From a virus, in IMG/VR virus record IMGVR_UViG_3300013132_000065, positions 1 to 53,252 of that record: a stretch of DNA of 53,252 nt, one strand, 5' to 3'. Of the stretch, positions 4,805-31,850 are shown one piece after another. Positions within the stretch are counted from its first letter, which is position 1; each line of letters opens with the position of its first letter. The notes beneath the pieces were generated by a model, which was not told where the DNA came from, ran no database searches, and saw only the letters and a program-made list of their open reading frames with translations. The translations under genes and the position numbers were made by a program.

Positions 4805-5443
4805 ATGACTATAACACGTGCATATATACAACAGCTGGTAACTGAAGAATTAAATAAATACCAATTCAATCGTATCATGGAATCCAAGCCATACTCTGGT
4901 AGCAAGATCATTGTATTTGATCTAGATGATACCCTAGTTATTACTAGAGCTCGTATTATAGTAACTGACCCTAAAACCAATAAAAGATACGCCCTTACCC
5001 CGGAGGAATATAATACATATCAAGTTCAGCCCGATCATCAATTAGACTTCTCCGAGTTTAGATCTTTGAATATATTGAAAGCTGGCAAGCTTATAGACTA
5101 TTACCTTAAGATATTGCAAGAAGCATATCGTCGGGGTATTCCTGTTAGCATTGTTACTGCACGCGATAATCGCAATTTAATCTATCAATGGTTCAAGGAG
5201 CATATTGGATATCCTATTGCGCGTACGCTCATATATGCTGTAACCGATCCCGTACATAATTTCCATGGAACTATTGCAGATCGTAAAAAGATGGCGTTCC
5301 GTGAGTTAATTGATCGAGGCTATACCGATTTTCAATTTTACGATGATGATCCGGAAAATCTACGACTCGTTAAATCAATTGAATCGGACTTTCCAAACGT
5401 ACGCATTGCTGCCCGGAGGGCTTATAAGCAATACTCTCGCTGA
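4805..5443 (+). CDS. HAD-family phosphatase with leader motif
   Basis: 212 aa. HAD motifs are in order: motif I DLDDTL (39-44, nucleophile Asp39 and acid/base Asp41), motif II VTAR (Thr118), motif III Lys near ADRKKM (161-162), motif IV YDDDPEN (about 179-185). It resembles the phosphatase half of phage polynucleotide kinases, so a 3'-phosphatase or small-molecule phosphatase is possible. It has no kinase P-loop. The first ~20 residues (ITRAYIQQLVTEELNK) match a leader motif shared with several neighbours, so the enzyme may be packaged in the virion. Substrate unknown. Confidence 0.75.
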   Translation: MTITRAYIQQLVTEELNKYQFNRIMESKPYSGSKIIVFDLDDTLVITRARIIVTDPKTNKRYALTPEEYNTYQVQPDHQLDFSEFRSLNILKAGKLIDYYLKILQEAYRRGIPVSIVTARDNRNLIYQWFKEHIGYPIARTLIYAVTDPVHNFHGTIADRKKMAFRELIDRGYTDFQFYDDDPENLRLVKSIESDFPNVRIAARRAYKQYSR

Positions 5444-5449
5444 TTATAA

Positions 5450-6202
5450 TTAACGCTGAGGCTGATATGCACCACCTAGGCCTCGCGAGGCTAATGCATC
5501 AGCTATCATGATAGCTTCACGACTTTGTGATCGTAGGGAGCGTGTACCGGGGCTAAGCCATGGCGAATCCACATGTATTTGGGTAACTGGCAAAGTTTGG
5601 TCTAGTATCCATGTTTCCTTTTCCTGATACCCGCCCGCCGCAGTTAAAAAATCCGGATTCATAAAAGCCAATGCTTTGACTTGCTTATAAGGAATAGTGA
5701 CAACAATGGCCCATCTGCCAGCTGGTAATCTACCCTGTGCAAAGTTCGCTGCTACCAACCAATCTAGCGATACTGATACAAAACCCGGGCTACGAGATTT
5801 AATGTGTTGTGATACGGGGCCTAATCGAAACCAATTGCCGGCGCTGACTTCCGTGATCTGGATCGCGGGATCTTGTATTAATTCCGCGCATTGTTCCACA
5901 GCTAAAGTCATGCCTCTATATACCCGATCGCTGTCAGCTAATCCCGGATCTAACACAGCTGGGAACTTTTGTTTTAAGGGCAATAATTGCTCGATAGCTG
6001 AGATATCAATCTGATCTTTTTCGCCATTCGTAAGGTAAGTATATAACTGCCACCAAAGCGCCTCTTCTTCCTCGGTATTCCTTTCCTTCATGCCGTCATA
6101 CACTTGCGCGATAAATCGATTATAACGGATGTGACGTTGGGGATTAGCCCATAAGAGATCGCCGTATTGGAATTCTCGTAATAATGTTTTCAATCGTATC
6201 AT
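5450..6202 (-). CDS. ADP-ribosyltransferase paralogue 1 (R-S-ExE)
   Basis: Only clear minus-strand gene in the window. Numbered from an in-frame ATG at 6208, R-S-E class ART motifs are YRG with Arg98, the SVS strand (145-147) and E196-K-E198 before TWIL. It would move ADP-ribose from NAD to a protein, with ExE typical of arginine-specific enzymes. The N-terminus MIRLKTLLREFQYGDLLWA is shared with the other paralogues and contains a possible L-x-E cleavage site. KFPAVLDP before the YRG motif is also shared. The start at 6202 is chosen because MIRL is conserved. T4 Alt is a known packaged phage ART. Target unknown. Confidence 0.85.
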   Translation of the reverse strand: MIRLKTLLREFQYGDLLWANPQRHIRYNRFIAQVYDGMKERNTEEEEALWWQLYTYLTNGEKDQIDISAIEQLLPLKQKFPAVLDPGLADSDRVYRGMTLAVEQCAELIQDPAIQITEVSAGNWFRLGPVSQHIKSRSPGFVSVSLDWLVAANFAQGRLPAGRWAIVVTIPYKQVKALAFMNPDFLTAAGGYQEKETWILDQTLPVTQIHVDSPWLSPGTRSLRSQSREAIMIADALASRGLGGAYQPQR

Positions 6203-6206
6203 ATAC

Positions 6207-6215
6207 ATAAATATA
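6207..6215 (-). promoter_or_regulatory. Candidate late promoter TATATTTAT (minus strand)
   Basis: On the minus strand TATATTTAT ends only 4 bases before the ART start at 6202. The sequence around it (TATATTTATGTATATGATACG) is almost the same as that before the ART gene at 9290. With transcription starting about 6 bases downstream, the mRNA would be essentially leaderless. Confidence 0.5.
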
Positions 6216-6324
6216 TAGCAGCCGTAGATCTAGTGTGTCTTGTGTAAGGCCGTAGGCTTCCGAAGGCCGGGCCCATGGGGGGGTGAAATGCATAGACCAC
6301 ACATTATATTTTATTAATTAAGGA

Positions 6325-6332
6325 ATATTTAT
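6325..6332 (+). promoter_or_regulatory. Candidate late promoter ATATTTAT
   Basis: ATATTTAT two bases before the ATG at 6335, in the divergent region between a minus-strand and a plus-strand gene. The intergenic part upstream (6216-6320) holds a GC-rich imperfect hairpin near 6253-6280 and a G-run, with no gene. Confidence 0.45.
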
Positions 6333-6334
6333 TA

Positions 6335-6673
6335 ATGAATATAACTAGGAATCATTCAATGATCAATCAAAAAAATGGTAAGGATAAAATGTCACGGCCA
6401 TCGCGATCAAATCGAGCCGGACTAACTGAATCAGCTTTACGTGCTATAATCTGTGAAGAGTTGCGCCGTGTGATCGCGGAAAGACGGGTATATCGGTCCG
6501 CGGAATACGAAGAAATGCATAGCGCGATTGAAACGATTCTAGATAATCTACGCTTCCTCGAACCGCCTCATATAGTGCCCGCCCGCGATGCACGCGAAGC
6601 AGTCCGCGATGTGCAAAAGGCCTTGCAAGCATTGTCTGAATTGATCGATCGGTACGGCACTGAAGATAGATGA
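6335..6673 (+). CDS. Leader-motif small helical protein
   Basis: 112 aa, highly charged and helical, no catalytic motif. Contains LRAIICEELRRVI at about 35-47, one of eight copies in this window of an (I/L)-I-x-E-E-(L/I) motif. An internal ATG at 6389 has AAGGAT just upstream; starting there would place the motif at residues 17-25, as in the other tagged proteins, so 6389 may be the true start. The stop overlaps the ART start (ATGA). It could be a packaged internal protein or a partner of the ART. Confidence 0.65.
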   Translation: MNITRNHSMINQKNGKDKMSRPSRSNRAGLTESALRAIICEELRRVIAERRVYRSAEYEEMHSAIETILDNLRFLEPPHIVPARDAREAVRDVQKALQALSELIDRYGTEDR

Positions 6674-7488
6674 TTCGATTACGTGACTTGCTCCTTGAGT
6701 TAGATTACGGTGACAAGCTATTTGCGGATGATTTGATCGACCCGAAACACCCTCGCGAAAAGGCTTGGGGACGATTTATCCAGCAAATATATCGACCGGA
6801 TTTTGAGCCCAACACTGGCGCGGAGCAGGAACTACTCGACCAATTGCAAGCATATATCGGCGTGGGCCACCGCAATGCGAAGCTTGCGAGTGCATTGCAG
6901 CAATTGCTACCACTGCGATCGCGATTCCCTCGTATATTAGATCCAACCGCGGCCAGCATCACGAGTGACGACGAAACGCCCATGCCATGGGCTGAGCCTT
7001 ATCCGGATCTTGCATGGCGCGGCACCTGGGCGCCGATGCCATGGGCAGCTAAGGTAATGGCTCAAAGCAAACATGTTCACAACGTAACCGTGTCCGATGA
7101 ATATTCGCTTCGTCATGTCATGTTTCGAGATGGGAGGGAAGTCGAGGCTACGGTTTTCGAGCGCCCGGGCGTGATTTATAAGTCATCAGGTGAGCGTATG
7201 ATTTCTTTTTCCGATCGGCCCGATGTCGCATTTAGATTCATGCGTGCACGCGCTAAGGATATATATAATCCAAGCAAACCGTCTGGCGTGCCAGTCGCGC
7301 TTGGCATTGCAAAAACGCACCCACGTTTAATCATGAATCCGGATGCTATGAATGCGTTAGGTAGCGATTTTGCGGGAGGTGAATCTGAAATGCTGTTGCT
7401 GACTAATGCGTTTACCCCGGATGTTGTTGTGTTTATAGATCCATATGGGCTTAAATACATAGATAACTATATAGATAACATCCAGTGA
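6670..7488 (+). CDS. ADP-ribosyltransferase paralogue 2 (R-S-ExE)
   Basis: 272 aa, ATGA overlap with the gene before it. The N-terminus MIRLRDLLLELDYGDKLFAD is the shared paralogue leader. RFPRILDP (86-92) precedes the catalytic region. ART motifs: WRG with Arg117 (Trp replaces the usual Tyr), SFS at 179-181, and E238-S-E240. An insertion between the Arg and STS motifs makes it longer than its siblings. The last part, VVVFIDP, matches the shared V-x-x-L-x-I-x-DP ending. GC content is visibly higher than in the neighbouring ARTs, so it may have a different history. Confidence 0.83.
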   Translation: MIRLRDLLLELDYGDKLFADDLIDPKHPREKAWGRFIQQIYRPDFEPNTGAEQELLDQLQAYIGVGHRNAKLASALQQLLPLRSRFPRILDPTAASITSDDETPMPWAEPYPDLAWRGTWAPMPWAAKVMAQSKHVHNVTVSDEYSLRHVMFRDGREVEATVFERPGVIYKSSGERMISFSDRPDVAFRFMRARAKDIYNPSKPSGVPVALGIAKTHPRLIMNPDAMNALGSDFAGGESEMLLLTNAFTPDVVVFIDPYGLKYIDNYIDNIQ

Positions 7489-7495
7489 GCAGCGT

Positions 7496-7503
7496 ATATT
7501 TAT
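7496..7503 (+). promoter_or_regulatory. Candidate late promoter ATATTTAT
   Basis: Lies in the 39-base gap between an ART gene and the gene at 7528, 24 bases before the ATG, embedded in TATATTTATA. Confidence 0.5.
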
Positions 7504-7527
7504 ATTAAAATTTAAGTAGAATTTATC

Positions 7528-7953
7528 ATGACCAGAAAACAACAAGCCATGTCAATGCTTCGTCGAATCATTCGCGAAGAAATTGATAAATTAGCGATGA
7601 GAGAATTCGAGATCAGGGAAGCTTCTCATGTAAATGAGGTTTCAGATTTTAACGACCCCGTTTTAGTTGCGTTTAGAGCAGCGCAGCTTCGCAGAAACCA
7701 GGATACCAAAAAAGCGCCGGCTTTAAAGCCAGCTGAAGCTAGGAAATTAAACTCACAGCTTGAAAAGATATATCGCGCGTTAAACGTACTTTATGTTGAT
7801 CGCAATAGAATCTTGAATGACATGGAACAAGAAGCTGAAATGGGCGGCGGTCCTATTGCCGATCGGTACAGTGATGACTTGGAAAAGCTAGAAGGTAAGA
7901 TAGCCAAACTCTTAACTCAACGCAAGGCAATAGAAATTAAATTAGCTCAGTGA
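7528..7953 (+). CDS. Leader-motif coiled-coil protein
   Basis: 141 aa. The N-terminus carries LRRIIREEIDKL at 11-22, the tag shared with several neighbours. The rest is strongly helical and charged, with heptad-like leucines (LEKIYRALNVL, LEKLEGKIAKLL) indicating coiled coil. No enzyme motif. Candidate internal virion protein, by the tag and its position in the ART block. Function otherwise unknown. Confidence 0.7.
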   Translation: MTRKQQAMSMLRRIIREEIDKLAMREFEIREASHVNEVSDFNDPVLVAFRAAQLRRNQDTKKAPALKPAEARKLNSQLEKIYRALNVLYVDRNRILNDMEQEAEMGGGPIADRYSDDLEKLEGKIAKLLTQRKAIEIKLAQ

Positions 7954-7975
7954 AATAACTAAAAAAAGAAATTTT

Positions 7976-8377
7976 ATGAATCATAGCCAAAACAAATCTG
8001 CCAAGCAAAAACTCGAAGAAATAATAACTAAAATTATACGTGAAGAGCTCGCGGAGGGTGGATGGAGTAAAAGCGCGTTGGCTGCATTTTCACGAAAAAC
8101 CAAGCCGGGTAGATACTTTATTACCACATCTAAAGACGCCAAACCCGGCTGGGCAACCTTCCCGACCATGGCCGGTTTTAACGCTTTTATACGGGACGAG
8201 CTCCGTCGAGGGAATGATTTCGCTAGAGGCGCGGAAGTCATTAACATACATGACAAACAAAAAGGTGATCGGGCAGTACTGCAATATTTTTGGTCGCCGC
8301 GCACAGGTGTAGACTATATTCGGCCGACAGTACCTAATGGTAAGCCAGGTGAAGTTAATCCAAAATATGTTTTGTAA
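7976..8377 (+). CDS. Leader-motif hypothetical protein, 133 aa
   Basis: The tag IITKIIREEL lies at 16-25. A Gly/Pro-containing globular part follows, including PGRYFITTSKDAKPGWATFP and an aromatic C-terminal region (LQYFWSPRTGVDYIRP). No recognised family. It sits between a tagged coiled-coil gene and an ART gene in the same direction, consistent with one transcription unit of internal-protein genes. Confidence 0.65.
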   Translation: MNHSQNKSAKQKLEEIITKIIREELAEGGWSKSALAAFSRKTKPGRYFITTSKDAKPGWATFPTMAGFNAFIRDELRRGNDFARGAEVINIHDKQKGDRAVLQYFWSPRTGVDYIRPTVPNGKPGEVNPKYVL

Positions 8378-8408
8378 CGAGAATTAATAACATTGATCAA
8401 TTTATGAT

Positions 8409-9242
8409 ATGAGTGTGATACGATTGCGAAAATTATTACAAGAATTTGAAGTTGGAAATTTACTATGGGCTGACTCATCAGATACTAGGCGTTCAGGGTA
8501 TTTTCAGAAATTTCTTAATACAGTTTATGGTGATGAGATAGAGCCTAATACTCCGGAGGAAGCGGCTGCATTAGAACGAATAGAATCTTTTATATTAAAT
8601 AATGATATTAAGACGCCTTCCGGTGTCCGTACATTAAATGAGCCGAAAAAATTTATAAAAGATTTATTAAAACTCAAGCCAAAATTTCCGGCAATGCTTG
8701 ACCCATTATATAATAATCCGAAGTTGAGTAACGATGCTTACATATATCGCGGAATGACAACTGAGTTATCTATAATAATTCACACTATTCAGTATGCTAA
8801 ATCGTTCGAAAGGATTCGGGCACAAAACGATAACCATTATATAAGTGTTAAACATCCCAAAGTAAGTATAAAATCACGTGCAAAAGGATTTATGAGTTTC
8901 ACCACAGGCTCTCAGAAGCTCTCCGGACTCGCCGTAGCTGATATATTCACAGGGCAAAACTTATGGTCAGCGTCCGGTGCAGGCCGTTGGGGAGTTATTA
9001 TTGGAATACGGTATGGAGATATTGCAGATAAGGCATTATTAAATCCGGAGTTTGTTGAAGCTATTGGCGGTTGGGGCGAATCTGAAATATGGTTATTAGA
9101 AGGAAAAATTGTACCTGATGTATTGTATATACGAGATCCATTCATATGGTATGGCACCGACAGTCGCGCGACTGTACCTAATGAAATAAAAAATGCCTTG
9201 AAGGCAAATCCTAACTTTCAACATATGACAGATGTAGTGTAA
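8409..9242 (+). CDS. ADP-ribosyltransferase paralogue 3 (R-S-ExE)
   Basis: 277 aa. Shared leader VIRLRKLLQEFEVGNLLWAD (3-22), then EPNTPEE (45-51) and KFPAMLDP (92-99), both found in sibling ARTs. Catalytic motifs: YRG with Arg114, SFT at 163-165, and E224-S-E226 before IWLL. AGRWGVIIGI lies between the second and third motifs as in paralogue 1. The ATG at 8409 is used; the equivalent of the sibling MIRL start would be the GTG at 8415. NAD-dependent protein ADP-ribosylation is expected; target unknown. Confidence 0.85.
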   Translation: MSVIRLRKLLQEFEVGNLLWADSSDTRRSGYFQKFLNTVYGDEIEPNTPEEAAALERIESFILNNDIKTPSGVRTLNEPKKFIKDLLKLKPKFPAMLDPLYNNPKLSNDAYIYRGMTTELSIIIHTIQYAKSFERIRAQNDNHYISVKHPKVSIKSRAKGFMSFTTGSQKLSGLAVADIFTGQNLWSASGAGRWGVIIGIRYGDIADKALLNPEFVEAIGGWGESEIWLLEGKIVPDVLYIRDPFIWYGTDSRATVPNEIKNALKANPNFQHMTDVV

Positions 9243-9275
9243 TTGCAATAATTTTACTTAAACACTTCATTACAT

Positions 9276-9283
9276 ATATTTAT
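9276..9283 (+). promoter_or_regulatory. Candidate late promoter ATATTTAT
   Basis: Six bases before the ATG of the ART gene at 9290, in the same local sequence as that upstream of the minus-strand ART gene. It implies a near-leaderless mRNA if it is the -10 element. Confidence 0.5.
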
Positions 9284-9289
9284 GTATAT

Positions 9290-10066
9290 ATGATACGACT
9301 ACGTCAATTATTACAAGAATTTGAAGTTGGAAAGCATCTATGGGCTGATGAAGATATATATAAATCGGCTCGTTCAAAACAAGCAAAATTCCTTCAAGCA
9401 CTATACCATGGTGCATGGGAACCTAATACTCCGGAAGAGCTAGCGGCCTGGCGTGAGATATATTACTACGTAATGACGAGTAAAAAGAGCCCGAACTTTA
9501 TAAAGATCTTAGACGATCTACTCGCTCTTAAGTCAAAATTTCCTAAAATACTTGATCCAGAATTATCACCGAAAACTAAGCTTTATCGTGGAATGACTTT
9601 AGACGCGGAGCGTATAGTTGAGTTGTTATATGCTAGCAATTCAGTAACTAAAGCGACGGGCTGGCAAAATTTTGATGACGTTCTCGGAGGCACTGTTATA
9701 CGAATTGCGATTGATCGCCGCTTCATCAGGTCACGTAGCGCGAAATTTTTATCAATGTCTACTGAATATACAGTTGCTAAAAATTTTGCCAGGTGGCCTA
9801 TGACACGTGCCGGTATGATGGACGGTTCTAGATGGCCTCTTATTGCGGAAATAAATTATAGTGATATCGAGGCCTTAGCTTTAATGAATCCAAAATTCAT
9901 GAATACTTTTTCTGTGTTAGACGAAGAGGAAATTTGGGTAGTTGCTGACGCGGTACCTATTACAGCTTTATATATAACTGATCCTAGATCAATTGATGCT
10001 CCCACGGAATACAATGAGGCTCAGCGGATGATCGCGAATGCATTAAATCGCAAAAATCCGCATTAA
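9290..10066 (+). CDS. ADP-ribosyltransferase paralogue 4 (R-S-ExE)
   Basis: 258 aa. Leader MIRLRQLLQEFEVGKHLWAD with candidate L-Q-E cleavage site at residues 8-10. EPNTPEE (44-50) and KFPKILDP (83-90) are shared with siblings. Catalytic motifs: YRG with Arg100, SMS at 155-157, and E212-E213-E214 before IWVV. It is the closest sibling of paralogue 3 in its first 20 residues. T4 Alt shows that phages can package an ART and inject it with the DNA; the leader here suggests the same, as an inference. Target unknown. Confidence 0.86.
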   Translation: MIRLRQLLQEFEVGKHLWADEDIYKSARSKQAKFLQALYHGAWEPNTPEELAAWREIYYYVMTSKKSPNFIKILDDLLALKSKFPKILDPELSPKTKLYRGMTLDAERIVELLYASNSVTKATGWQNFDDVLGGTVIRIAIDRRFIRSRSAKFLSMSTEYTVAKNFARWPMTRAGMMDGSRWPLIAEINYSDIEALALMNPKFMNTFSVLDEEEIWVVADAVPITALYITDPRSIDAPTEYNEAQRMIANALNRKNPH

Positions 10067-10095
10067 TCATTAACAACCCGTTTTTTATTGTACAT

Positions 10096-10103
10096 ATATT
10101 TAT
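10096..10103 (+). promoter_or_regulatory. Candidate late promoter ATATTTAT
   Basis: Lies in TACATATATTTATAC, 21 bases before the ATG at 10125. The leader would carry a weak TAGGAA ribosome site. Confidence 0.5.
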
Positions 10104-10124
10104 ACTAAATAACTAGGAATTGTT

Positions 10125-10475
10125 ATGAAACAGTATAAGTCGAGACTCTTACGTGAGTATATTTCGCGAGAAATTCGTACTCAATTAAAAGAAAATGATA
10201 GCAAGAATTTCGCTTCGGATAGTCAGTCTGATTTAGATATTGGCCATGTCGATGATGAGCCGGGTATGATAAAAGCTGACTTATATCGAATTGCTAAATA
10301 TGCAGTAGAATTATATAAATTAGTATCTCATTTAGAAGAAACGGGTAAAGAGGTTGACTTTCCGCATTGGTGGCAAGCTGATATCATTGAAGCTAAGGAT
10401 CGTATGATCAATGCTAAACACTATGTCCATGGCGAGCTGAATATGCCAGGATTTGATAAAATGTTAGGGCTATGA
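10125..10475 (+). CDS. Leader-motif hypothetical protein, 116 aa
   Basis: N-terminal LLREYISREIRTQL (8-21), a looser copy of the tag found on neighbouring proteins. An acidic, mostly helical body follows, with no catalytic motif. It is the first gene of a tightly overlapping set: its stop overlaps the lipoprotein start (ATGA), which in turn overlaps the next ART start. Confidence 0.65.
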   Translation: MKQYKSRLLREYISREIRTQLKENDSKNFASDSQSDLDIGHVDDEPGMIKADLYRIAKYAVELYKLVSHLEETGKEVDFPHWWQADIIEAKDRMINAKHYVHGELNMPGFDKMLGL

Positions 10476-10783
10476 AAGTTATATATAGTATAGTTGCATG
10501 TATATGCTTATTAGTTAGTTGCACATCATCATCACATATGCAATGTGATGAAGTATATTCATATGATTATAATTGCCCAGAACGCGATTATTATAATTTT
10601 AATGTATACCGCGCGTATTATCCAAATACCGAGACAGTATACTTTGTGCCCTATTATGTGCCAAACACACACGAGCCGAAATGTAATGATCATGCAACGC
10701 CTAGTAGGGAAATTATAACGGGGCGCCGGCCATCTTTATCATCTCACCGTACTAATAAACGCCCTGAGACAAATGAACAATGA
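10472..10783 (+). CDS. Small Tyr-rich lipoprotein
   Basis: 103 aa with a lipoprotein signal: short basic start, hydrophobic core, lipobox LVSC with Cys17. The mature part is rich in Tyr, Asn and Pro (YDYNCPERDYYNFNVYRAYY) and ends in a basic tail. Translationally coupled on both sides by ATGA overlaps, between a tagged protein and an ART. It could be an outer-membrane factor made late in infection, for example one that blocks superinfection; this is only inferred from location and signal. Confidence 0.7.
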   Translation: MKVIYSIVACICLLVSCTSSSHMQCDEVYSYDYNCPERDYYNFNVYRAYYPNTETVYFVPYYVPNTHEPKCNDHATPSREIITGRRPSLSSHRTNKRPETNEQ

Positions 10784-11532
10784 GGCTATTACATTTATTG
10801 CATGAGTTTGAATATGGTGAAAATTTATTTGCCGATCCTAGTCATTATAGCAATGTACAGACTACATCTGACTTAAATATCATTGGCTATCGTAACTATG
10901 CAGATATAGAAACTGATACTGAGGATGAGACGCGCGCGTTAGAATTACTCGATGTATTTTATTCTGGTGATTTTGTCAACTTAGATGAAACCGCATTGTA
11001 TAAACTCATCGCACCACTAAAAAAACTTAAATCAAAATTTCCAAAAATATTAGACCCACGTACTAGTCCCGGTATTGGGCAAATGGTGTACCGCGGTGCA
11101 ACTATATCTTTAGATTTAGTTAAAGATATGCCGTATACGGTCGCTGGCAGCAATATTATACTTGAAGTGCCTAAAAATTTTAAAGTACGGCCGCAATCTG
11201 GACGGCCTATACACTCTTTTAGTATTAAACGGTATATGGCAGTTAATTATGCATTAAATCAAACATTAATGTCAGTAGAAAATCCAAGCCGTGTACCAGC
11301 TATAATTTGCGTAGATGTAAATGATCCTAATTTATTATTTTCAACTCGTTTTTCAGAGCTACATAGTATATATAGAGAAGAAGAAGAAGTATTTTATGCT
11401 AACTATGATATTACAGTAAACGAGTTAATTCTAAAGTCAGCAATTATAGAAGATATATATAAAGAACATGCTAATAGCAGTAATCATGTTGTACGCAGTG
11501 TATATACTAAATGGTATAATGCTATCAATTAA
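10780..11532 (+). CDS. ADP-ribosyltransferase paralogue 5 (R-S-ExE)
   Basis: 250 aa. Leader MRLLHLLHEFEYGENLFADP, with L-H-E at 7-9. KSKFPKILDP (84-93) is shared with siblings. Catalytic motifs: YRG with Arg105, SFS at 146-148, and a run of four Glu (200-203) supplying E201-x-E203 before VFY. The region between the STS and ExE motifs lacks the RW-x-V-I strand seen in paralogues 1, 3 and 4, so this copy has diverged. It starts with an ATGA overlap on the lipoprotein gene. Confidence 0.82.
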   Translation: MRLLHLLHEFEYGENLFADPSHYSNVQTTSDLNIIGYRNYADIETDTEDETRALELLDVFYSGDFVNLDETALYKLIAPLKKLKSKFPKILDPRTSPGIGQMVYRGATISLDLVKDMPYTVAGSNIILEVPKNFKVRPQSGRPIHSFSIKRYMAVNYALNQTLMSVENPSRVPAIICVDVNDPNLLFSTRFSELHSIYREEEEVFYANYDITVNELILKSAIIEDIYKEHANSSNHVVRSVYTKWYNAIN

Positions 11533-11539: not shown

Positions 11540-11543
11540 TAAT

Positions 11544-15399: not shown

Positions 15400-15627
15400 A
15401 TGCCAGCGGTAAGCAAACAGCAACAAAAATTCTTTGGAGTAGTAAAATCAATGCAACAAGGAGATATGCCAGCTCGCGGGGCGGCGGGTAAAGTTGCTAA
15501 AACTATGAGTAAGTCAGATGTGGATAAGTTTGCTAGTACAAAGCACGATAAATTGCCTAATAAACTACGGGAGATGGTGATTAATATAATTCGTGAAGAA
15601 CTAATAAAACTACGAAAAAAAAGGTAA
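15400..15627 (+). CDS. DUF3008-like small protein with C-terminal tag
   Basis: 75 aa. MPAVSKQQQKFFGVVKSMQQGD followed by VAKTMSKSDVDKFASTKHDKLP matches the DUF3008-type family of small proteins found in phages and bacteria (the two patterns S-K-Q-Q-x-F-F and D-x-x-x-F-A-x-T-K-H). The tail INIIREELIKLRKKR carries the same IIREEL motif as the N-termini of several neighbours, here at the C-terminus. Function unknown. Confidence 0.75.
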   Translation: MPAVSKQQQKFFGVVKSMQQGDMPARGAAGKVAKTMSKSDVDKFASTKHDKLPNKLREMVINIIREELIKLRKKR

Positions 15628-20536: not shown

Positions 20537-20722
20537 ATGACATCACAAGAATTATTTACTAACATGGAAGCCCATTGGAATGAGTTCGCGGAAAATCACA
20601 ATAAGTACGTTGATAAGGGTAATAAGGCAGCTGCTACCCGCGCTCGTAAATCTATTGGCGAACTTAAAAAACTTATTACAGAATACAGAAAAGAGTCAGT
20701 TGCTGAAAGCAAAAGAACCTGA
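20537..20722 (+). CDS. Histone H1 (Hc1)-like DNA-binding protein
   Basis: 61 aa. A helical N-terminus is followed by KGNKAAATRARKSIGELKK, then ITEYRKES. The pattern K-G-N-K-A-A-x-T-R-A-R-K-x-x-x-E-L-K is the signature of the small Hc1/histone H1-like proteins that are common in Bacteroidota. It probably binds or compacts DNA, either phage DNA for packaging or host chromosome. It has a good ribosome site and a candidate late promoter. A phage-borne copy may have come from the host line. Confidence 0.8.
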   Translation: MTSQELFTNMEAHWNEFAENHNKYVDKGNKAAATRARKSIGELKKLITEYRKESVAESKRT

Positions 20723-20726
20723 TACA

Positions 20727-21122
20727 ATGAAACCTAACCGTAAATACAATATTAGAGCTATCATACGAGAGGAGCTTAATAACATTATCCGTGAACAGGA
20801 TGGTAAGTATGGACGTCTTCTCGATGCTGAAAATTTCGACCCGATTGATCCTGAAGTCTATGTACAAGGATTTGGTACAATGACACGGTCTTCGCTTCAT
20901 ATGGATATTGCAAAACGTTTGATAAGTATTGCACGTACTGCTAAACAGGCAGCGTCGAGCGGTACTAATTCATATGATAAATTTAAGGTATTGCAATCCG
21001 AGTTAGGTGATAAATCACAAATTATGCAGCTGATTAAGGCTGAACTTGATGTGGCTAATGAGCTCGAGACTATACGTACTCGAGGCGGACGCCGTACAAC
21101 GCCAATTCCTAAGCAAAATTAA
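20727..21122 (+). CDS. Leader-motif hypothetical protein, 131 aa
   Basis: The start at 20727 (MKPNRKYNIRAIIREELNNIIREQDG) is chosen because it places the shared IIREEL tag at residues 12-17, and the upstream frame lies inside the Hc1-like gene. The rest is helical, ending in a basic tail (TRGGRRTTPIPKQN). Possible internal virion protein; function unknown. Confidence 0.65.
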   Translation: MKPNRKYNIRAIIREELNNIIREQDGKYGRLLDAENFDPIDPEVYVQGFGTMTRSSLHMDIAKRLISIARTAKQAASSGTNSYDKFKVLQSELGDKSQIMQLIKAELDVANELETIRTRGGRRTTPIPKQN

Positions 21123-23061: not shown

Positions 23062-23062
23062 A

Positions 23063-24535: not shown

Positions 24536-24538
24536 AAG

Positions 24539-24570: not shown

Positions 24571-24573
24571 AGT

Positions 24574-25629: not shown

Positions 25630-25636
25630 TATTTAT
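25629..25636 (+). promoter_or_regulatory. Candidate late promoter ATATTTAT
   Basis: Overlaps the UvsE stop and lies 14 bases before the ATG at 25651; AAAAAGG follows as a ribosome site. Confidence 0.5.
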
Positions 25637-25650
25637 TAAAAAGGTTTATA

Positions 25651-25824
25651 ATGAGAGATAGAGAAAATGTATTACGTCTACTAGACGAAGTAGACAACAT
25701 GGTTATGATTTTAGATAGTACTGTCGAACGCGGTCTTCCAATAGATCCTGCAGAAGCTCGATCGCGTTTTCGACAAATGCGTCAAAAATTACAAATTATA
25801 ACAGACCGAGTTTCTGCATCATAA
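25651..25824 (+). CDS. Small conserved phage protein, 57 aa
   Basis: MRDRENVLRLLDEVDNMVMILDS then a helix FRQMRQKLQIITDRVSAS. Helical hairpin-like, with AAAAAGG upstream. Similar small helical proteins occur beside membrane-protein and gp55 genes in other T4-like phages, as far as I recall. Function unknown. Confidence 0.68.
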   Translation: MRDRENVLRLLDEVDNMVMILDSTVERGLPIDPAEARSRFRQMRQKLQIITDRVSAS

Positions 25825-25830
25825 TGAACA

Positions 25831-26883
25831 ATGAAAAACAGAATATTCCCGTTTATCATTGCATTTAGTGCATTATCAGTTTCATTATCAGCGGCGTTTT
25901 ATTCTGTTACAGGATTAAGTAAACTATTTGCAGGTGCTAGTTTTGAGGTACTAATTATGGCATCTTCACTTGAAGTGTCTAAATTAGTTATTGCATCGCT
26001 ATTGTATCAATATTGGCATCAATTAAACAAACTACTACGCACCTACCTAGTATTAGCCTGTACTATTTTAATTCTAATTACTAGTATTGGAATATACGGC
26101 TTTTTATCGGCTGCATATCAACAAACCGCAGCTTCCGCTGGTAGTGTTGATAAACAAATTGAATTAGTTGAAATAAAGCGAGACAATATCAATCAACAAC
26201 TGAGTGTGTATAACGCAGAAAAAACAGATATATCCGCGGCTATTACGGAATTAAGATCTGGCATATCACGCAATGTTGTACAATATACGGATGCACGCGG
26301 TAATCAAGTAACTACTACATCTGCTGCAAATCGTAAAGCTTTAGAACGTCAGTTAGATCAGACAACACAGCGCCAAGCCATACTAAATACAAAAATAGAT
26401 AGTTTGAATACTATTTTATTTGATTATGAAACGCAAATAACAGACTTAAAAATTAATGGTGATACCGCCGGCGAACTAGGACCTTTAAAGTATTTATCTG
26501 GGCTTACGGGTGTTACAATGGATAAAATTATTAACGTACTATTACTCATAATAATTTTTGTATTTGATCCTTTGGCTATATCATTAGTAATAGCGGCAAA
26601 TTTTGCATTCGCACAACTTAAAAAGAAAGATGATGTTATCACGGACAAAGATGACCAACGTGTAGCATTGGTTGAAATGATGCAAACGGACGAAGATAAC
26701 GGATTATATGAAGATGAGCCTGCAGCAACAGCTGACGTTGTAGCCGAGGGTGATATAGATTCTGCTACAGATACTATTACTGATGATGATCGTTTTTGGT
26801 TAGAGGCGATGGCTAAGAAAGAACAGGAATCTACTAAAAAAATTAAAGACCGATATCGAAATTCTTATTGGGCTCAACACTAA
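25831..26883 (+). CDS. Four-TM membrane protein with long coiled coil
   Basis: 350 aa. Hydrophobic spans at about 5-27, 38-60, 70-95 and 235-262. Between the third and fourth lies a long coiled coil (about 105-215, with QIELVEIKRDNINQQL and ALERQLDQTTQRQAIL), probably outside the cytoplasm. A charged, acidic C-terminal tail of ~80 residues follows. Similar proteins are seen in T4-like marine phages, without known role. The layout suggests a sensor or an envelope-spanning element. Confidence 0.72.
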   Translation: MKNRIFPFIIAFSALSVSLSAAFYSVTGLSKLFAGASFEVLIMASSLEVSKLVIASLLYQYWHQLNKLLRTYLVLACTILILITSIGIYGFLSAAYQQTAASAGSVDKQIELVEIKRDNINQQLSVYNAEKTDISAAITELRSGISRNVVQYTDARGNQVTTTSAANRKALERQLDQTTQRQAILNTKIDSLNTILFDYETQITDLKINGDTAGELGPLKYLSGLTGVTMDKIINVLLLIIIFVFDPLAISLVIAANFAFAQLKKKDDVITDKDDQRVALVEMMQTDEDNGLYEDEPAATADVVAEGDIDSATDTITDDDRFWLEAMAKKEQESTKKIKDRYRNSYWAQH

Positions 26884-26892
26884 ACTAGTTTC

Positions 26893-27411
26893 ATGAAAAA
26901 AACTAAATACGATTTTAAAACACGCACACGTAACAATAAACGTTACATGATTTGCCGTAACAGTATTGAAAGTACTACTCATTGGTCATGGGAACATCTT
27001 AAAGATAAGCCTAGATGTAATCGTTGGGAGGAAGTTGGTAAAGATACTGTTGCGGTATTATGCAATGTATGTACTCAGCTAACAGTTCCGCCGCCCGAAC
27101 CTCGTCGTGGGCATGTATCAAAAGGCCGGCCACGCGGATGGCAATTTATGCAAGAATTTGTAGATGCCGATGGCAATGTATTTCATAAAGGTATAGAACA
27201 ACCAACGCTTAAAGGCACATTACAGCCAACAGAAGCTAAAGAACCGCCAAAAAAACTATCTCGTAAAGAGAAAGAGGAACTTAAAGATAAGATATTGCAG
27301 CAAATTGCATTTACTCGAGGTGAAGTAAAAAAAGCTAAGTTTAAAAAGGATATTAAGGCCGGCAATACTAAAATGCGCAGACTGCAACGAGATCTGAAAA
27401 AACTTAACTAA
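26893..27411 (+). CDS. Conserved phage protein with Cys cluster and AT-hook-like motif
   Basis: 172 aa. An N-terminal region with Cys residues (MICRN, PRCNRW, LCNVC) may bind zinc. A basic GRPRGWQFM segment resembles an AT-hook, followed by a helical basic tail (KKLSRKEKEELKDK..., ending RRLQRDLKKLN). Its position two genes before ClpP and five before gp55 hints at a role in transcription or DNA handling, but this is inference. Confidence 0.65.
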   Translation: MKKTKYDFKTRTRNNKRYMICRNSIESTTHWSWEHLKDKPRCNRWEEVGKDTVAVLCNVCTQLTVPPPEPRRGHVSKGRPRGWQFMQEFVDADGNVFHKGIEQPTLKGTLQPTEAKEPPKKLSRKEKEELKDKILQQIAFTRGEVKKAKFKKDIKAGNTKMRRLQRDLKKLN

Positions 27412-27451
27412 TTATTTGTGATAAAAATAATTTGTTAATATATTTGAATAT

Positions 27452-28045
27452 ATGAGTATATACAATGATACGCCTCAATCTAACAAACAACTTGTTAGTT
27501 TAGAGCAAGTACCTATCACTGATCAGTTATCATCGTTACTTGACTTAAATGATAATATCATTTTTTTAAGCGGTGAAATTGACGAACATGCACTAGCCCA
27601 GTTTATTATGAAAGTACGTATTTTAGACTTTCATAACGCGCCTGAGTATATAAATGTCGTAATCAATTCACCTGGCGGCGACTTACTTGATGCGTTAGGT
27701 ATTATTGATTTCATGGAATCATCTTCTATTAAGTTTAATACAATCTGCCGCGGCGCAGCGTATTCAGCTGCAGCAATGATTTTATTAGCTGGCACGGGCA
27801 CCCGTGTTGCTAGCAAGCGATCATCTATTATGTTACACCAACCTACACAAGATCTTGGGTGGATGACAACATCTGATTTAACTAATATATCAAAGTACAG
27901 TCAGTCTCAATTAGTAGTAATTTATGAACTATTAGAACAACGTACGAATAAAGACACGGTATGGTGGGCCGATAAATTACGTACTGATTTCTGGCTAAGT
28001 GCACAAGATGCATTAGAATTAAATATAATTGACCAAATAATTTAA
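27452..28045 (+). CDS. ClpP-like serine protease
   Basis: 197 aa. ClpP fold with NSPGGDLLDALGI (72-84), nucleophile Ser105 in GAAYSAAAMILLAG, His129 in SIMLHQP, and a candidate Asp179 in the C-terminal segment. This is the full ClpP triad pattern. ClpP normally works with an AAA+ unfoldase; none is adjacent here, so it may use the host ClpX, replace host ClpP, or act in prohead maturation. ClpP homologues are known in other T4-like phages. The gene ends two bases before the HD gene. Confidence 0.88.
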   Translation: MSIYNDTPQSNKQLVSLEQVPITDQLSSLLDLNDNIIFLSGEIDEHALAQFIMKVRILDFHNAPEYINVVINSPGGDLLDALGIIDFMESSSIKFNTICRGAAYSAAAMILLAGTGTRVASKRSSIMLHQPTQDLGWMTTSDLTNISKYSQSQLVVIYELLEQRTNKDTVWWADKLRTDFWLSAQDALELNIIDQII

Positions 28046-28047
28046 AC

Positions 28048-28782
28048 ATGAGTTTAACAATAGACCAGATTGCTGAAAATTGGAAAACATACCGTGAACG
28101 CGTTAACGCATGGTTTCCGGAGCGCGCTGAAGCGCTAAACAAAATGTATGATGTCCTCGAGGACCGTATGATGATGATGCCAGCCTCAAGTATTGATCAT
28201 TATCATAATGCATTTGATGGCGGATATGTAGATCACGTACTACGTGTTATGGACTGTGCATCTAAACTGTATTCAGTATGGGGCGAGCTAGGTGCTAGTT
28301 TAGATGGATTTACCGAGGAAGAATTAATGTTCGCTGCAATGCATCATGACTTAGGAAAAGCTGGATTTCCTAATGATGGTGGACAAATTTATGTTGTTAA
28401 TGAGTCAGAGTGGCATCGTAAAAACCAAGGTAAAATGTATTCACATAACCCTAACAACCCATTTACAATGGTACCCGATTTAGGGCTATGGATGTTACAG
28501 AATTTTAAAATTTATGTAACTTGGAATGAATATCAGGGTATACGTATCCATGATGGACTATACGATGACGCAAATAAACCATATTATATTTCTAGGAATG
28601 CTGAGAGTAAGTTACGTACTAACTTACCGATGATTTTGCATCATGCAGATTTGTTAGCAGCACGTATTGAATATGAAATGTGGCGTGATAAATCAGTTAC
28701 AAAATCAACGTCAAAAAAGAAACCTACCGGACCTAAGCCATCAATTGATGCAACTAAATTGTTTGAAGACTTGTTCGGTTGA
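28048..28782 (+). CDS. HD-domain phosphohydrolase
   Basis: 244 aa. HD motif: His63 in YVDHVLRV, His100-Asp101 in MHHDLGK, a further His168-Asp169 (IHDG) and Asp201 in LHHADLLAARIE. These are the metal ligands of HD phosphohydrolases. Substrates in the family include dNTPs, cyclic or linear nucleotides and ppGpp. Degrading a host signal nucleotide or adjusting dNTP pools would both fit a phage. A basic linker (SKKKPTGPKP) precedes a short acidic C-terminus. Confidence 0.82.
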   Translation: MSLTIDQIAENWKTYRERVNAWFPERAEALNKMYDVLEDRMMMMPASSIDHYHNAFDGGYVDHVLRVMDCASKLYSVWGELGASLDGFTEEELMFAAMHHDLGKAGFPNDGGQIYVVNESEWHRKNQGKMYSHNPNNPFTMVPDLGLWMLQNFKIYVTWNEYQGIRIHDGLYDDANKPYYISRNAESKLRTNLPMILHHADLLAARIEYEMWRDKSVTKSTSKKKPTGPKPSIDATKLFEDLFG

Positions 28783-28797
28783 TAAACGGAGAATTTA

Positions 28798-29082
28798 ATG
28801 TTAGTAGGATTAATTATTGTAAGTGTTTTATTAGCCGTTGCAATTAGTATTATCATAATGCAATTGATACGGCAGGAAAAATTAGAAGAATATGTTCAAG
28901 ATCTTGAAGACTCAAATACCGAATATTATACATTCTTTAAGACATTACGAGCTCGTATAGGTGATTCGAATGCCGCGCTCCGAGCTGTAGATAGACGCGG
29001 CGCTTTCCAGTCTGACGATGAGGTTGGATTTATTTTCGCTGAAATGCGCCGTATTATAGAAGAACTTGATAGGAGTTTTTAA
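28798..29082 (+). CDS. Membrane-anchored small protein upstream of gp55
   Basis: 94 aa. N-terminal TM span (2-22, LVGLIIVSVLLAVAISIIIM), then a charged helix, ending in the motif DRRGAFQSDDEVGFIF. This D-x-x-G-x-F-x-x-D-D-E-V-G-F motif recurs in small phage proteins next to the late sigma factor. Overlaps gp55 (TAATG), with a probable regulatory or coupling role. Function not known. Confidence 0.72.
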   Translation: MLVGLIIVSVLLAVAISIIIMQLIRQEKLEEYVQDLEDSNTEYYTFFKTLRARIGDSNAALRAVDRRGAFQSDDEVGFIFAEMRRIIEELDRSF

Positions 29083-29837
29083 TGAACTCTGCACAAGATT
29101 TTTATGATTGGCTCAAAACTCATGAACCTGATGATGATGGTATTAAGCGCGGTCGAAAGCCGTCTAAAAAGCAATATTTTACTATAGTAACGGAGAATGC
29201 AATCGTTGCTTATAATAATGAATCAGATGAACATGAACGTAATAAATTATATAGAAATCATATACATCAGCCATTTGATAAGCTTGTAGAAAATATTTAC
29301 CATACATTTAAATTTAGTTATTTTGATATACCGTACGAAGATATTAAATGCGAAGTCATTGCATTTCTTAATGAAAAAATTCATAAGTATAAAGCCGGTA
29401 AAGGTAAAGCATTTTCCTACTTTTCTATCATTGCAAAGAATTATTTAATAATTCAAAACAATCAGAATTATGCAAAGCTTAAATCTAGAGTAGACGTTAA
29501 TGAAATTGATGATTCGCGTGATTTAGATCGAGAAGTATCGACAAGCGACCAACAAGGTCAATTGCGTGATTTTACAAATCTATGGTGTGAGTGGTATGAC
29601 GTAAATCTATCATCTATATTCACTACTAGTAGAGACATAATTGTAGCGGATGCTATTTTAGAATTATTCCGCATGCGCGATAACATCGAAGATTTTAATA
29701 AAAAGGCCCTGTACATTCTCATCCGAGAGCGTACGGGGTTACGCACACAAAATATTACCAAGGTTATTAATATAATGAAGCGTGACTTTGAAAAAATGTA
29801 TGTAGTATATCATCAGCGCGGCCGAGTGCGTTCATGA
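29082..29837 (+). CDS. 55: Late-transcription sigma factor, T4 gp55-like
   Basis: 251 aa. The central KGKAFSYFSIIAKNYLIIQNNQNY (about 106-129) is a sigma region 2 core of the gp55 type, preceded by RNHIHQPFDKLVENIYHTFKF. gp55 replaces host sigma to read late promoters, with a T4-like clamp and gp33 in the model phage. The protein is longer than T4 gp55. It is coupled to the previous gene. Candidate target sites in this window are the ATATTTAT boxes. Confidence 0.83.
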   Translation: MNSAQDFYDWLKTHEPDDDGIKRGRKPSKKQYFTIVTENAIVAYNNESDEHERNKLYRNHIHQPFDKLVENIYHTFKFSYFDIPYEDIKCEVIAFLNEKIHKYKAGKGKAFSYFSIIAKNYLIIQNNQNYAKLKSRVDVNEIDDSRDLDREVSTSDQQGQLRDFTNLWCEWYDVNLSSIFTTSRDIIVADAILELFRMRDNIEDFNKKALYILIRERTGLRTQNITKVINIMKRDFEKMYVVYHQRGRVRS

Positions 29838-29850
29838 ACTTGATATTTAG

Positions 29851-29858
29851 ATATTTAT
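29851..29858 (+). promoter_or_regulatory. Candidate late promoter ATATTTAT
   Basis: 15 bases before the ATG at 29874, the first gene of the baseplate module; AAAGGGA follows as a ribosome site. Confidence 0.55.
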
Positions 29859-29873
29859 TTTAAAGGGACTATT

Positions 29874-30269
29874 ATGGGGCCAAACGATTTTGAACTCTTT
29901 AAAGGTACTACATTTTCAGATTTAATGAAAGATGTGTATCATAATTCCAAAAAAAAATCTAGGCAAATAGATTCTTTAATACAACAATTAGAACCGTTAG
30001 TTAAAAATGTTAGTGATGCAACGCTAATAGTTCCTATGATAAAGGACTATATAGAGGTATCTGTTAAAAACGATGATGCATTAGTTAAATTGGCATCAAT
30101 TGTTCAACGATTAGTTAATACCAATTCTAAAGAAGATAACTCTGAATTTGGGTTATCAGATGAAGAACGTACTAGACTTTTACAGGAGGCAGAGGATGAG
30201 GTAAAGTCATTACGATCTAATCAACCTACACTTAACGAGGATTCGAGTGGAGTACGCACAGGTAGTTGA
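29874..30269 (+). CDS. Conserved phage protein, 131 aa
   Basis: Begins MGPNDFELFKGTTFSDLMKDVYHNSKKKSRQIDSLIQQL; helical, with an acidic C-terminus (DEERTRLLQEAEDEV). The F-K-G-T-T-F-S-D-L start is familiar from proteins placed next to baseplate hub genes in other large phages. Likely virion assembly or baseplate related, by position only. Overlaps the next gene by 23 bases. Confidence 0.66.
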   Translation: MGPNDFELFKGTTFSDLMKDVYHNSKKKSRQIDSLIQQLEPLVKNVSDATLIVPMIKDYIEVSVKNDDALVKLASIVQRLVNTNSKEDNSEFGLSDEERTRLLQEAEDEVKSLRSNQPTLNEDSSGVRTGS

Positions 30270-31401
30270 TGAAGGTAACGGCGGAGTATATAATCGTACG
30301 ATCATTGATTACAATGGCGAACGACGAGATCGTATGCCTGGCGAAATTTTAGTACGTAAACAAAACAAACGTACTAGTACTCCATCAGAGTTATATGTAG
30401 TGCCAATATTTGACTTTATTACACGCGTGCCATTAAATGGTGAATTGGTCATAATTTTTCAGCTACCAAATGGCAATGCATCAACTAAATACGGCGATTT
30501 ACGTTGGTTTTATTTAACAACGCCGGCCATGCATGGCAGCCGAAATTTAAATATGTTACCATGGATAATGAATACTGTAGTACCGGGTTCAATGTTAGGC
30601 TCGGTCGGCGGAATTGCAAATGCCCAAGAACCAAAACAAAATACATTTAAAGAAAAGACCGTACCCGATCTTCAACCATATGAAGGTGATTTAATTATCA
30701 ATGATAGGTTCGGCTCTTCTATTAGATTTACAGCCGGCATAGATAAATCTGCACGCGCAGGTGATGGTTCTGTGTTATATTCTGCTTTACCGCCATGGGA
30801 TGGGCCCGCGGGCGACCCATTAATGGTCATTACAACTGGCAATTCAACTAATTCATCTAAATATGCAATTGAAAACTTTGATACTGATGCTGGTAGCATT
30901 ATTTTATCAACGTCTCAAAAGATTGATATATCAGCTGCGCATGACAATTTAGGTAAAGGCATTACGCCGATACGTAATTACAATAAGCCGCAAATATTAC
31001 TAAATAGTGACAGAGTCATTATAAATAGTAAAACTGATGAAATTGTATTATCAGGTAAACGAACTGTTTCTGTAGTAACGCCAAATTGGGCATCGGATAT
31101 GGATCGTTTTTTTAGCATGGTCGGCGATATGCATAATGAGCTAAAAAGTTTACAAACTGAAGTATCAGCACTTTCAGCACAAGTAAATGCATTAGCATCG
31201 ACGGCCGTCACATACGGCACGACTCAATCGACTATAATTGCAGCGGCCCCTATATTTGCGCCTTTAGCACCGCCAAATGCTACATTAATAACATCGGCTA
31301 CGGGCGTTGTAACGCAGACGTCATTAATAACGGGTAAACTGCTTCAAATTAAAACAAATCTAGGTAAAATTGATACAATTTTATCAACTCTAAAACAATG
31401 A
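30247..31401 (+). CDS. Baseplate hub/spike protein, T4 gp5-like without lysozyme
   Basis: GTG start; 384 aa. The N-terminal part (about 1-110) has the OB-fold look of gp5 (GEILVRKQ, then VPLNGELVIIFQLPNG). A middle beta-rich region includes RVIINSKTDEIVLSG, and the C-terminus is a coiled-coil/trimer-like helix region (DMHNELKSLQTEVSALSAQVNAL). T4 gp5 carries a lysozyme domain between OB and spike; no such domain is visible here. It would form the membrane-piercing central spike. Confidence 0.72.
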   Translation: MEYAQVVDEGNGGVYNRTIIDYNGERRDRMPGEILVRKQNKRTSTPSELYVVPIFDFITRVPLNGELVIIFQLPNGNASTKYGDLRWFYLTTPAMHGSRNLNMLPWIMNTVVPGSMLGSVGGIANAQEPKQNTFKEKTVPDLQPYEGDLIINDRFGSSIRFTAGIDKSARAGDGSVLYSALPPWDGPAGDPLMVITTGNSTNSSKYAIENFDTDAGSIILSTSQKIDISAAHDNLGKGITPIRNYNKPQILLNSDRVIINSKTDEIVLSGKRTVSVVTPNWASDMDRFFSMVGDMHNELKSLQTEVSALSAQVNALASTAVTYGTTQSTIIAAAPIFAPLAPPNATLITSATGVVTQTSLITGKLLQIKTNLGKIDTILSTLKQ

Positions 31402-31402
31402 C

Positions 31403-31410
31403 ATATTTAT
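31403..31410 (+). promoter_or_regulatory. Candidate late promoter ATATTTAT
   Basis: 14 bases before the ATG at 31425; AAAGGAA lies in the leader. Confidence 0.54.
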
Positions 31411-31424
31411 TATAAAGGAAGTTT

Positions 31425-31850
31425 ATGAAAACCGAATCATTTCTAAATACACTACGTAAAATTATCCGAGAAGAAGTACGTAATGCTGTACGACAAGAAT
31501 TGAATGAGGCTCTTAACACAAAAAAGCCTTATAAAGAAGTTATTAACCATGGCGTAAATTTACAGCGCGAAGCAACAAAGCCAGCTGCTAGAAAACAATA
31601 CGTTAAAAACGAAATGTTAAATAATATTCTAAATGAAACATCGACTATCAATGATGGCGGATGGGACACATTAGAATTTAAATCAGAACTAGCTCAGGCA
31701 TATGGCATGAATTCTACAAATATAATTCAAGATATGTCTGGCAATGCATTTGATGTTAATGATTTAAAGAAAACTGACGCCGGCGCCGCTGTGGCAAATG
31801 CACTTACTAGAGACTATTCGTCATTAATGAAAGCTATCAATAAAAAATAA
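31425..31850 (+). CDS. Leader-motif protein in the baseplate module
   Basis: 141 aa. N-terminal LRKIIREEVRNAVRQELNEAL (10-30) is a long copy of the IIREEL tag. The body contains TTINDGGWDTLEF-like turns and a helical end (ANALTRDYSSLMKAINKK). It lies between the gp5-like and gp25-like genes. Being tagged yet in the tail module, it shows that the tag is not confined to the ART block. Role unknown. Confidence 0.68.
   Translation: MKTESFLNTLRKIIREEVRNAVRQELNEALNTKKPYKEVINHGVNLQREATKPAARKQYVKNEMLNNILNETSTINDGGWDTLEFKSELAQAYGMNSTNIIQDMSGNAFDVNDLKKTDAGAAVANALTRDYSSLMKAINKK

What the first reader, a model, noticed from the sequence alone, without database searches (positions are those of the whole stretch)
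4805..31850. Second tag, IIREEL, on eight otherwise unrelated proteins
A short helix with (I/L)-(I/V)-x-E-E-(L/I) or a looser form recurs at 4805 (HAD), 6335, 7528, 7976, 10125, 15400, 20727 and 31425. The proteins share nothing else that I can see. It lies at the N-terminus in seven and at the C-terminus in one. It again contains [I/L]-x-E. A modular sorting signal for packaging, or a docking helix for one common partner, would explain it.
Basis: partly seen in the sequence, partly recalled or inferred. Interest (0 to 1): 0.72.

Follow-up and report, generated by a model that had tools for sequence, protein, structure and literature searches.

The report
Phage capsid-loading address tag (inferred)
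A roughly 21-residue helix, found almost always at the very start of dozens of otherwise unrelated small proteins in a group of T4-related marine and freshwater phages, ends in a T4-type head-protease cleavage site and is most likely the address label that loads them into the virus head for injection into the host, although packaging itself has not been shown.

Summary
In the window, [ILV][ILVM]xEE[LIVM] occurs seven times; all seven lie near a protein end once the starts of 6335 and 20580 are corrected (about 0.3 expected); 10125 has the looser form. In relatives the motif is the middle of a ~21-residue N-terminal module, MKxSELRKLIREEVRKVLxE, on about 50 unrelated bodies. [ILVM]xE ends exactly 11 residues after the motif start in 34 of 59 body clusters (1.4 expected). 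That is the T4-type prohead-protease site; relatives encode a Peptidase_S77 protease and capsid proteins with a matching [IV]xE|[AS] site. Bodies of tagged proteins reappear beside head genes, inside large multi-module proteins, and as DUF3008, whose cyanophage orthologue is annotated as a virion protein and carries a T4-like KTFKEFLE motif where this lineage has the tag. I conclude it is a lineage-specific capsid-targeting sequence analogous to that of T4 internal proteins. Four window copies (6335, 7528, 20727, 31425) are recovered above all decoys by an HMM trained without the window; 7976 is borderline; 4805, 10125 and 15400 rest on context. 31425, in the tail operon, is the weakest fit to the mechanism. 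Packaging and cleavage are inferred.

The parts
4805..4882 (+). tag, MTITRAYIQQLVTEELNKYQFNRIME|S, N-terminal extension on a HAD-like phosphatase (gene 4805-5443)
   Evidence: strict core motif; IxE ends at +15; most other HAD-like proteins in relatives start near the domain; not recovered by the HMM
6389..6481 (+). tag, ...ALRAIICEELRRVIAE|R (ORF 6335-6673; probable start 6389)
   Evidence: HMM trained without the window, 14.1 bits, above all decoys; IxE exactly at +11
7528..7620 (+). tag, MTRKQQAMSMLRRIIREEIDKLAMREFEIRE|A (gene 7528-7953)
   Evidence: HMM 15.6 bits; the body is a segment of larger proteins in L083, L084, L085 and immuto gp079
7976..8056 (+). tag, ...IITKIIREELAE|G (gene 7976-8377)
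   Evidence: strict core; LxE at +7; HMM borderline, 4.8 bits against best decoy 4.2
10125..10193 (+). looser tag, MKQYKSRLLREYISREIRTQLKE|N (gene 10125-10475)
   Evidence: LxE exactly at +11; body is a module of immuto gp079 and resembles by eye the tagged gene after the capsid gene in relatives; HMM alone not significant
15559..15624 (+). C-terminal tag NKLREMVINIIREELIKLRKKR on a DUF3008 protein (gene 15400-15627)
   Evidence: DUF3008 in Pfam; DUF3008 proteins L156 and L159 carry the same kind of helix after the domain, cyanophage orthologues a T4-like KTFKEFLE; HMM alone not significant
20727..20795 (+). tag, MKPNRKYNIRAIIREELNNIIRE|Q (ORF 20580-21122; true start probably 20727)
   Evidence: HMM 8.9 bits; IxE at +11; related tagged protein in G013 (L242:1385-1789)...QIVTEELQNVIME|Q, same body cluster
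31425..31508 (+). tag-like helix MKTESFLNTLRKIIREEVRNAVRQELNE|A of a conserved protein between the gp5-like and gp25-like genes (gene 31425-31850)
   Evidence: HMM 17.9 bits; helix family-wide, [ILVM]xE at its end in 31 of 35 aligned relatives; N-terminal helix is the better-predicted part of a low-confidence model
5450..11532 (.). neighbouring genes with the other, shorter tag (M-x-RLRxLLxE): ADP-ribosyltransferase-like proteins at 5450(-), 6670, 8409, 9290, 10780, interleaved with tagged genes
   Evidence: alignment keeps R, S and ExE; ADP-ribosyltransferase-superfamily structures make up most of the top matches of the 9290 model

Best explanation
IIREEL is the core of a capsid-targeting sequence. 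The N-terminal ~21 residues (MKxSELRKLIREEVRKVLxE) form an amphipathic helix that binds the internal scaffold (core) of the assembling head, so the protein behind it is enclosed. When the prohead is complete, the T4-gp21-type (Peptidase_S77) protease cuts after the final [IL]xE, freeing the mature protein inside the head, from where it is injected with the DNA. The cargoes are small, diverse, mostly orphan proteins (one HAD-like phosphatase, one DUF3008 protein), encoded among ADP-ribosyltransferase-like proteins bearing a second, shorter tag. By analogy with T4 IPI, IPII, IPIII and Alt they probably disarm host defences or reprogramme the host. Shown by sequence here: the module, its position, its fixed LxE, its spread over unrelated bodies, the protease and capsid-site context in relatives. 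Inferred: core binding, cleavage, packaging, injection and cargo function.
For: Terminal enrichment: window 7 strict matches; LR756508 21 N-terminal against 3.0 expected with 8 against 6.8 internal, capsid-gene loci 24 against 3.9 with 3 against 18 internal; G009 10 against 0.9, G010 9 against 0.4, G011 7 against 0.4. Modular: 81 non-redundant tagged proteins in 61 body clusters, some of them chance matches. [ILVM]xE exactly at +11 in 34 of 59 clusters, 1.4 expected, max 5 of 500 shuffles, although the pattern used to pick them did not ask for it. In the window 7 of 7 N-terminal tags have [ILVM]xE within +7 to +15, 1.8 expected. Peptidase_S77 in 9 of 10 relatives. In the listed non-redundant capsid-protein N-termini the region T4 cuts reads QL[IV]xE followed mostly by A or S. 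Tagged genes lie between protease and scaffold and just after the capsid gene in G005. Bodies of 10125 and 7528 are modules of immuto gp079, L083, L084, L085. DUF3008: tag here, T4-like KTFKEFLE in cyanophages; the S-SCSM1 orthologue is annotated virion protein, and that phage's virion proteome was determined by mass spectrometry (PMC9602691). T4 precedent: propeptides of 10-19 residues target unrelated internal proteins and are then cut (PMC9026906; PMC12373910).
Against: No virion proteomics or cleavage data were found for this lineage. The window is a fragment in which no head genes were recognised. Sequence similarity to the T4 CTS itself is limited to the LxE end. 31425 sits in the tail operon and its helix is conserved even in relatives with no other tagged proteins (G001, Mel-JY01). 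4805, 10125 and 15400 are not separable from decoys by sequence alone, and only two window tags (6335, 20727) match the full-length strict pattern. Tagged genes are also scattered far from the head cluster, though the T4 ip genes too lie in two loci (PMC12373910). I did not read the S-SCSM1 supplementary list that names its 45 virion proteins.
Confidence: 0.8

Rival explanations
1. Docking helix for a common partner outside the capsid, for example host RNA polymerase or a phage early complex; the proteins are made in the cell and never packaged.
For: A short amphipathic helix on unrelated proteins would look the same; no packaging data exist; tagged genes are scattered.
Against: A fixed [ILVM]xE at the helix end that matches the capsid-protein site has no role in this model; bodies reappear in large multi-module proteins and beside capsid genes; a DUF3008 orthologue is annotated as a virion protein.
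Confidence: 0.1
2. Mixed set: 6335, 7528, 7976, 10125 and 20727 carry a real capsid-targeting tag, while 31425 is an unrelated coiled-coil helix of a tail or baseplate protein and 4805 and 15400 are look-alikes.
For: 31425 lies between gp5-like and gp25-like genes in many relatives, its helix varies in length and is family-wide; 4805 and 15400 are not recovered above decoys; no relative of 4805 was found.
Against: The 31425 family keeps [ILVM]xE at the helix end in 31 of 35 sequences despite indels; DUF3008 relatives carry a similar helix at the same place; most other HAD-like proteins in relatives lack such an extension.
Confidence: 0.3
3. Chance or convergent amphipathic helices at protein starts.
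For: E-, K- and I-rich proteomes favour such strings; a few matches in the regex set are chance.
Against: Terminal enrichment far above shuffles, absent from four relatives; fixed LxE spacing; many residues shared between tags are encoded by different codons, so it is protein, not DNA, that is conserved.
Confidence: 0.02

Closest known systems
Capsid-targeting sequence of phage T4 internal proteins IPI, IPII, IPIII and Alt (PMC9026906, PMC12373910)
   Same: Short N-terminal propeptide on otherwise unrelated small proteins; ends in [LI]xE; phage group has an S77 prohead protease and an [IV]xE maturation site in the capsid protein; ADP-ribosyltransferase-like genes nearby, as T4 packages Alt.
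   Different: About 21-31 residues here against 10-19; different sequence (LRKLIREEVRKVL core against MKTYQEFIAE, the latter from memory); up to about 20 tagged proteins in a single genome; sometimes C-terminal or internal (DUF3008).
T4-like CTS motifs in cyanophages (K[TS][FL]KEFLE in DUF3008 proteins; MKSFLQFLKE|A on the S-SCSM1 NMNAT)
   Same: Stand after the DUF3008 domain, where this lineage has the IREE tag; both S-SCSM1 proteins are annotated as virion proteins, and NMNAT is named in the proteome text.
   Different: Shorter, phenylalanine-based, resembling T4 IPIII rather than the LIREEV helix.
Propeptides of head proteins in phiKZ-like giant phages such as SPN3US (PMC5694885)
   Same: Prohead protease cuts after xxE; head proteins enter the particle with propeptides.
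   Different: AxE specificity and mostly long propeptides, over 100 residues in several proteins.

Membership tests
T4-type capsid-targeting sequence (CTS) | short N-terminal propeptide shared by otherwise unrelated proteins | tested here: met
   61 body clusters with the tag near the N-terminus, some of them chance matches
T4-type capsid-targeting sequence (CTS) | propeptide ends at a prohead-protease site [LI]xE | tested here: met
   [ILVM]xE at +11 in 34 of 59 clusters against 1.4 expected; 7 of 7 N-terminal window tags within +7 to +15; actual cutting not tested
T4-type capsid-targeting sequence (CTS) | phage group encodes a gp21-type (S77) prohead protease and a capsid protein with the same site | tested here: met
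   9 of 10 relatives; QL[IV]xE|[AS] in capsid proteins; the window fragment shows no head genes, so tested in relatives only
T4-type capsid-targeting sequence (CTS) | sequence resembles T4 IPIII CTS | tested here: not met
   Only the LxE end is shared, judged by eye against the T4 sequence from memory; hence analogue, not member of the IP family
T4-type capsid-targeting sequence (CTS) | tagged proteins are inside virions and cut there | not testable with these tools
   Only indirect: DUF3008 orthologue annotated as virion protein in S-SCSM1
T4-type capsid-targeting sequence (CTS) | tag alone sends a reporter into the head | not testable with these tools
   Needs a fusion experiment
DUF3008 (PF11450) | score above Pfam gathering cut-off | tested here: met
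   15400: 24.4 bits against cut-off 24; phrog_28725 E 1.5e-17

The most novel reading that the evidence does not exclude
These phages run two parallel loading addresses, a short M-x-RLRxLLxE tag for ADP-ribosyltransferase-like proteins and a long LIREEV tag for small orphan proteins, and the long tag docks by imitating a helix of the scaffold itself: the scaffold gp22 of relatives carries LDLEEIIRELE-type motifs in its variable acidic linker (47 of 49 scaffolds tested; the motif was defined from these same sequences).
Probability: 0.25. Interest if true: 0.75.

Novelty: new variant of a known kind. Interest (0 to 1): 0.62.

Why it matters
If right, a ~21-residue string identifies injected proteins directly from sequence in a widespread group of aquatic T4-related phages, including a 484-kb one. 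It turns dozens of orphan genes into candidate injected anti-defence or host-takeover proteins that can be tested, and offers a new loading tag for delivering proteins with phage heads.

Tried and rejected
tblastn of a bare 20-21 residue tag against phage records is nearly blind: one record, LR756508.1, at E = 3, and none for a second tag. Hmmscan of bare tags gave only weak hits. No relatives of 4805, 7976, 20727 or 9290 in IMG/VR by peptide patterns. Pfam and PHROGs over 57 tagged proteins gave almost no functional domain beyond the HAD protein. AlphaFold2 of 31425 gave a low-confidence model with helices (pLDDT 67, pTM 0.21). Foldseek alone gave no confident match for the 9290 model. A crude test for the shorter tag was noisy. 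Tag as a DNA repeat: not favoured, since many shared residues use different codons. No paper with six variants of the tag string was found in the library; one search for IREEV listed only unrelated papers among those shown. The paper I looked up for immuto-type Flavobacterium phages does not mention immuto or virion mass spectrometry.
Full report
Setting. The window is a 53,252-base virus record, probably a fragment, with baseplate, tail, recombination and primase genes; I recognised no head genes in it. Its gp6-like baseplate protein is nearest to Microcystis phage Mel-JY01, the 484-kb uncultured phage LR756508 and Flavobacterium phage immuto. Relatives were taken from IMG/VR by the baseplate protein and by a relative's major capsid protein, and several contigs were read end to end or nearly so, as were LR756508, Mel-JY01 and most of immuto.

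Observation. The strict form of the motif occurs in seven of 69 predicted proteins. As called, five lie within 35 residues of an end; the other two become N-terminal when the start is moved to 6389 and 20727. Shuffles expect about 0.3 for both ends together. In an HMM test trained only on relatives' tags, 31425, 7528, 6335 and 20580/20727 score above everything in 20 decoy proteomes; 7976 is borderline; 15400 and 10125 are within decoys and 4805 is missed. These three rest on context.

The unit is larger than the motif. In LR756508 there are 21 N-terminal matches against 3.0 expected, with internal matches at background; in loci around the capsid gene 24 against 3.9; in contigs G009, G010, G011 10, 9 and 7 against less than 1 each. 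Four relatives (G001, G002, G003, Mel-JY01) show no enrichment beyond shuffles and no full tag. Around the capsid gene and in G009-G011 the consensus is MKxSELRKLIREEVRKVLxE. The tagged proteins fall into 61 clusters with no body similarity between clusters; a few single members look like chance matches, so about 50 is a fair number. At the end of the tag stands [ILVM]xE, exactly 11 residues after the motif start, in 34 of 59 clusters against 1.4 expected and at most 5 in 500 shuffles. The pattern used to collect the proteins did not ask for this. All seven N-terminal window tags have such a site within +7 to +15; 1.8 expected. Codon comparison within single genomes shows that many of the shared residues are spelled differently, so selection on the protein is likely.

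Link to the head. Nine of ten relatives tested encode a Peptidase_S77 prohead protease. In the listed non-redundant capsid-protein N-termini of relatives the region that T4 removes ends in QL[IV]xE, followed mostly by A or S. In G005 one tagged gene lies between protease and scaffold and another directly after the capsid gene. The second belongs to a cluster of seven tagged proteins, most of them just after capsid genes; the window's 10125 body resembles it by eye, and both match immuto gp079, though at different places. The 7528 body also matches immuto gp079, and inside gp079 segments are separated by MNE, VNE and LNE strings (read by eye). Similar modules occur in large proteins of L083, L084 and L085.

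The DUF3008 case. The window's C-terminal example, 15400, is a DUF3008 protein. In two relatives DUF3008 is followed by QELRNTIREVIKQSLRE or EELRNTIREVIKQSIISE; in cyanophages S-SCSM1, S-SM2 and S-WAM1 the C-terminal or later part carries RTFKEFLE, KTLKEFLE or KSFKEFLE, which resemble the T4 internal-protein signal. In P-TIM40 no such motif was seen in the part fetched. The S-SCSM1 orthologue is annotated as a virion protein; that phage's purified virions were analysed by mass spectrometry, 45 proteins found, NMNAT among those named (PMC9602691). That NMNAT begins MKSFLQFLKE|A.

Mechanism. T4 internal proteins carry 10-19-residue N-terminal propeptides that send them into the scaffold core and are cut off by gp21 (PMC9026906); the leader is the only part Ip1-3 share (PMC12373910). 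The tag meets the sequence-level criteria: short, N-terminal, shared by unrelated proteins, ending in the protease site. I therefore infer core binding, cleavage, packaging and injection. Neighbouring genes at 5450-11532 carry a second, shorter tag and keep the R, S and ExE residues of ADP-ribosyltransferases; a model of 9290 matches mainly ADP-ribosyltransferase-superfamily structures in a second-look alignment (best Z 6.9), though Foldseek alone was not confident. T4 packages such an enzyme, Alt.

The weak member. 31425 lies between gp5-like and gp25-like genes in many relatives, with its helix conserved through the family even where no other tagged protein is seen. Its helix also ends in [ILVM]xE in 31 of 35 sequences despite length changes. 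Whether it is a head protein or a tail protein with a similar helix is open.

Verdict. A lineage-specific variant of a known kind of signal. The tag string was not found in the held literature with the terms tried. Packaging has not been demonstrated for any tagged protein of this lineage.

Noticed in passing
L105:25061-25456, L107:11675-12139, L223:1399-2463 (relatives): Another N-terminal string, MKKQILSEQFxRMQxLAGIITES or MKQELITEAARLQKLAGILKEA, resembles the C-terminus of the scaffold protein (RFKKLAGL, RWKKLANL), perhaps a further core-docking tag.
   Followed up: no
Scaffold genes upstream of the capsid gene in L138-L217: Acidic, variable scaffold linker carries LDLEEIIRELE-type motifs and sometimes IDINEIIRSLREED, similar to the tag core.
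   Followed up: partly
window:5450-11532: Five ADP-ribosyltransferase-like paralogues with a shared short N-terminal string (M-x-RLRxLLxE) in a row of genes; 11544 may be a sixth by its motifs.
   Followed up: partly
window:15633-18901: One lipoprotein-like and two secreted-looking proteins with HExxH metalloprotease motifs (HEIGH, HELGH) and dockerin-like repeats (read by eye), unusual in a phage.
   Followed up: no
L107:14006-16531: Immuto gp079 (841 aa) strings together segments that are separate small genes in the window, divided by MNE, VNE and LNE strings.
   Followed up: partly
window:23870-24271, window:27452-28045: By eye, an Hsp20-like small heat-shock protein and a ClpP-like protease.
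   Followed up: no
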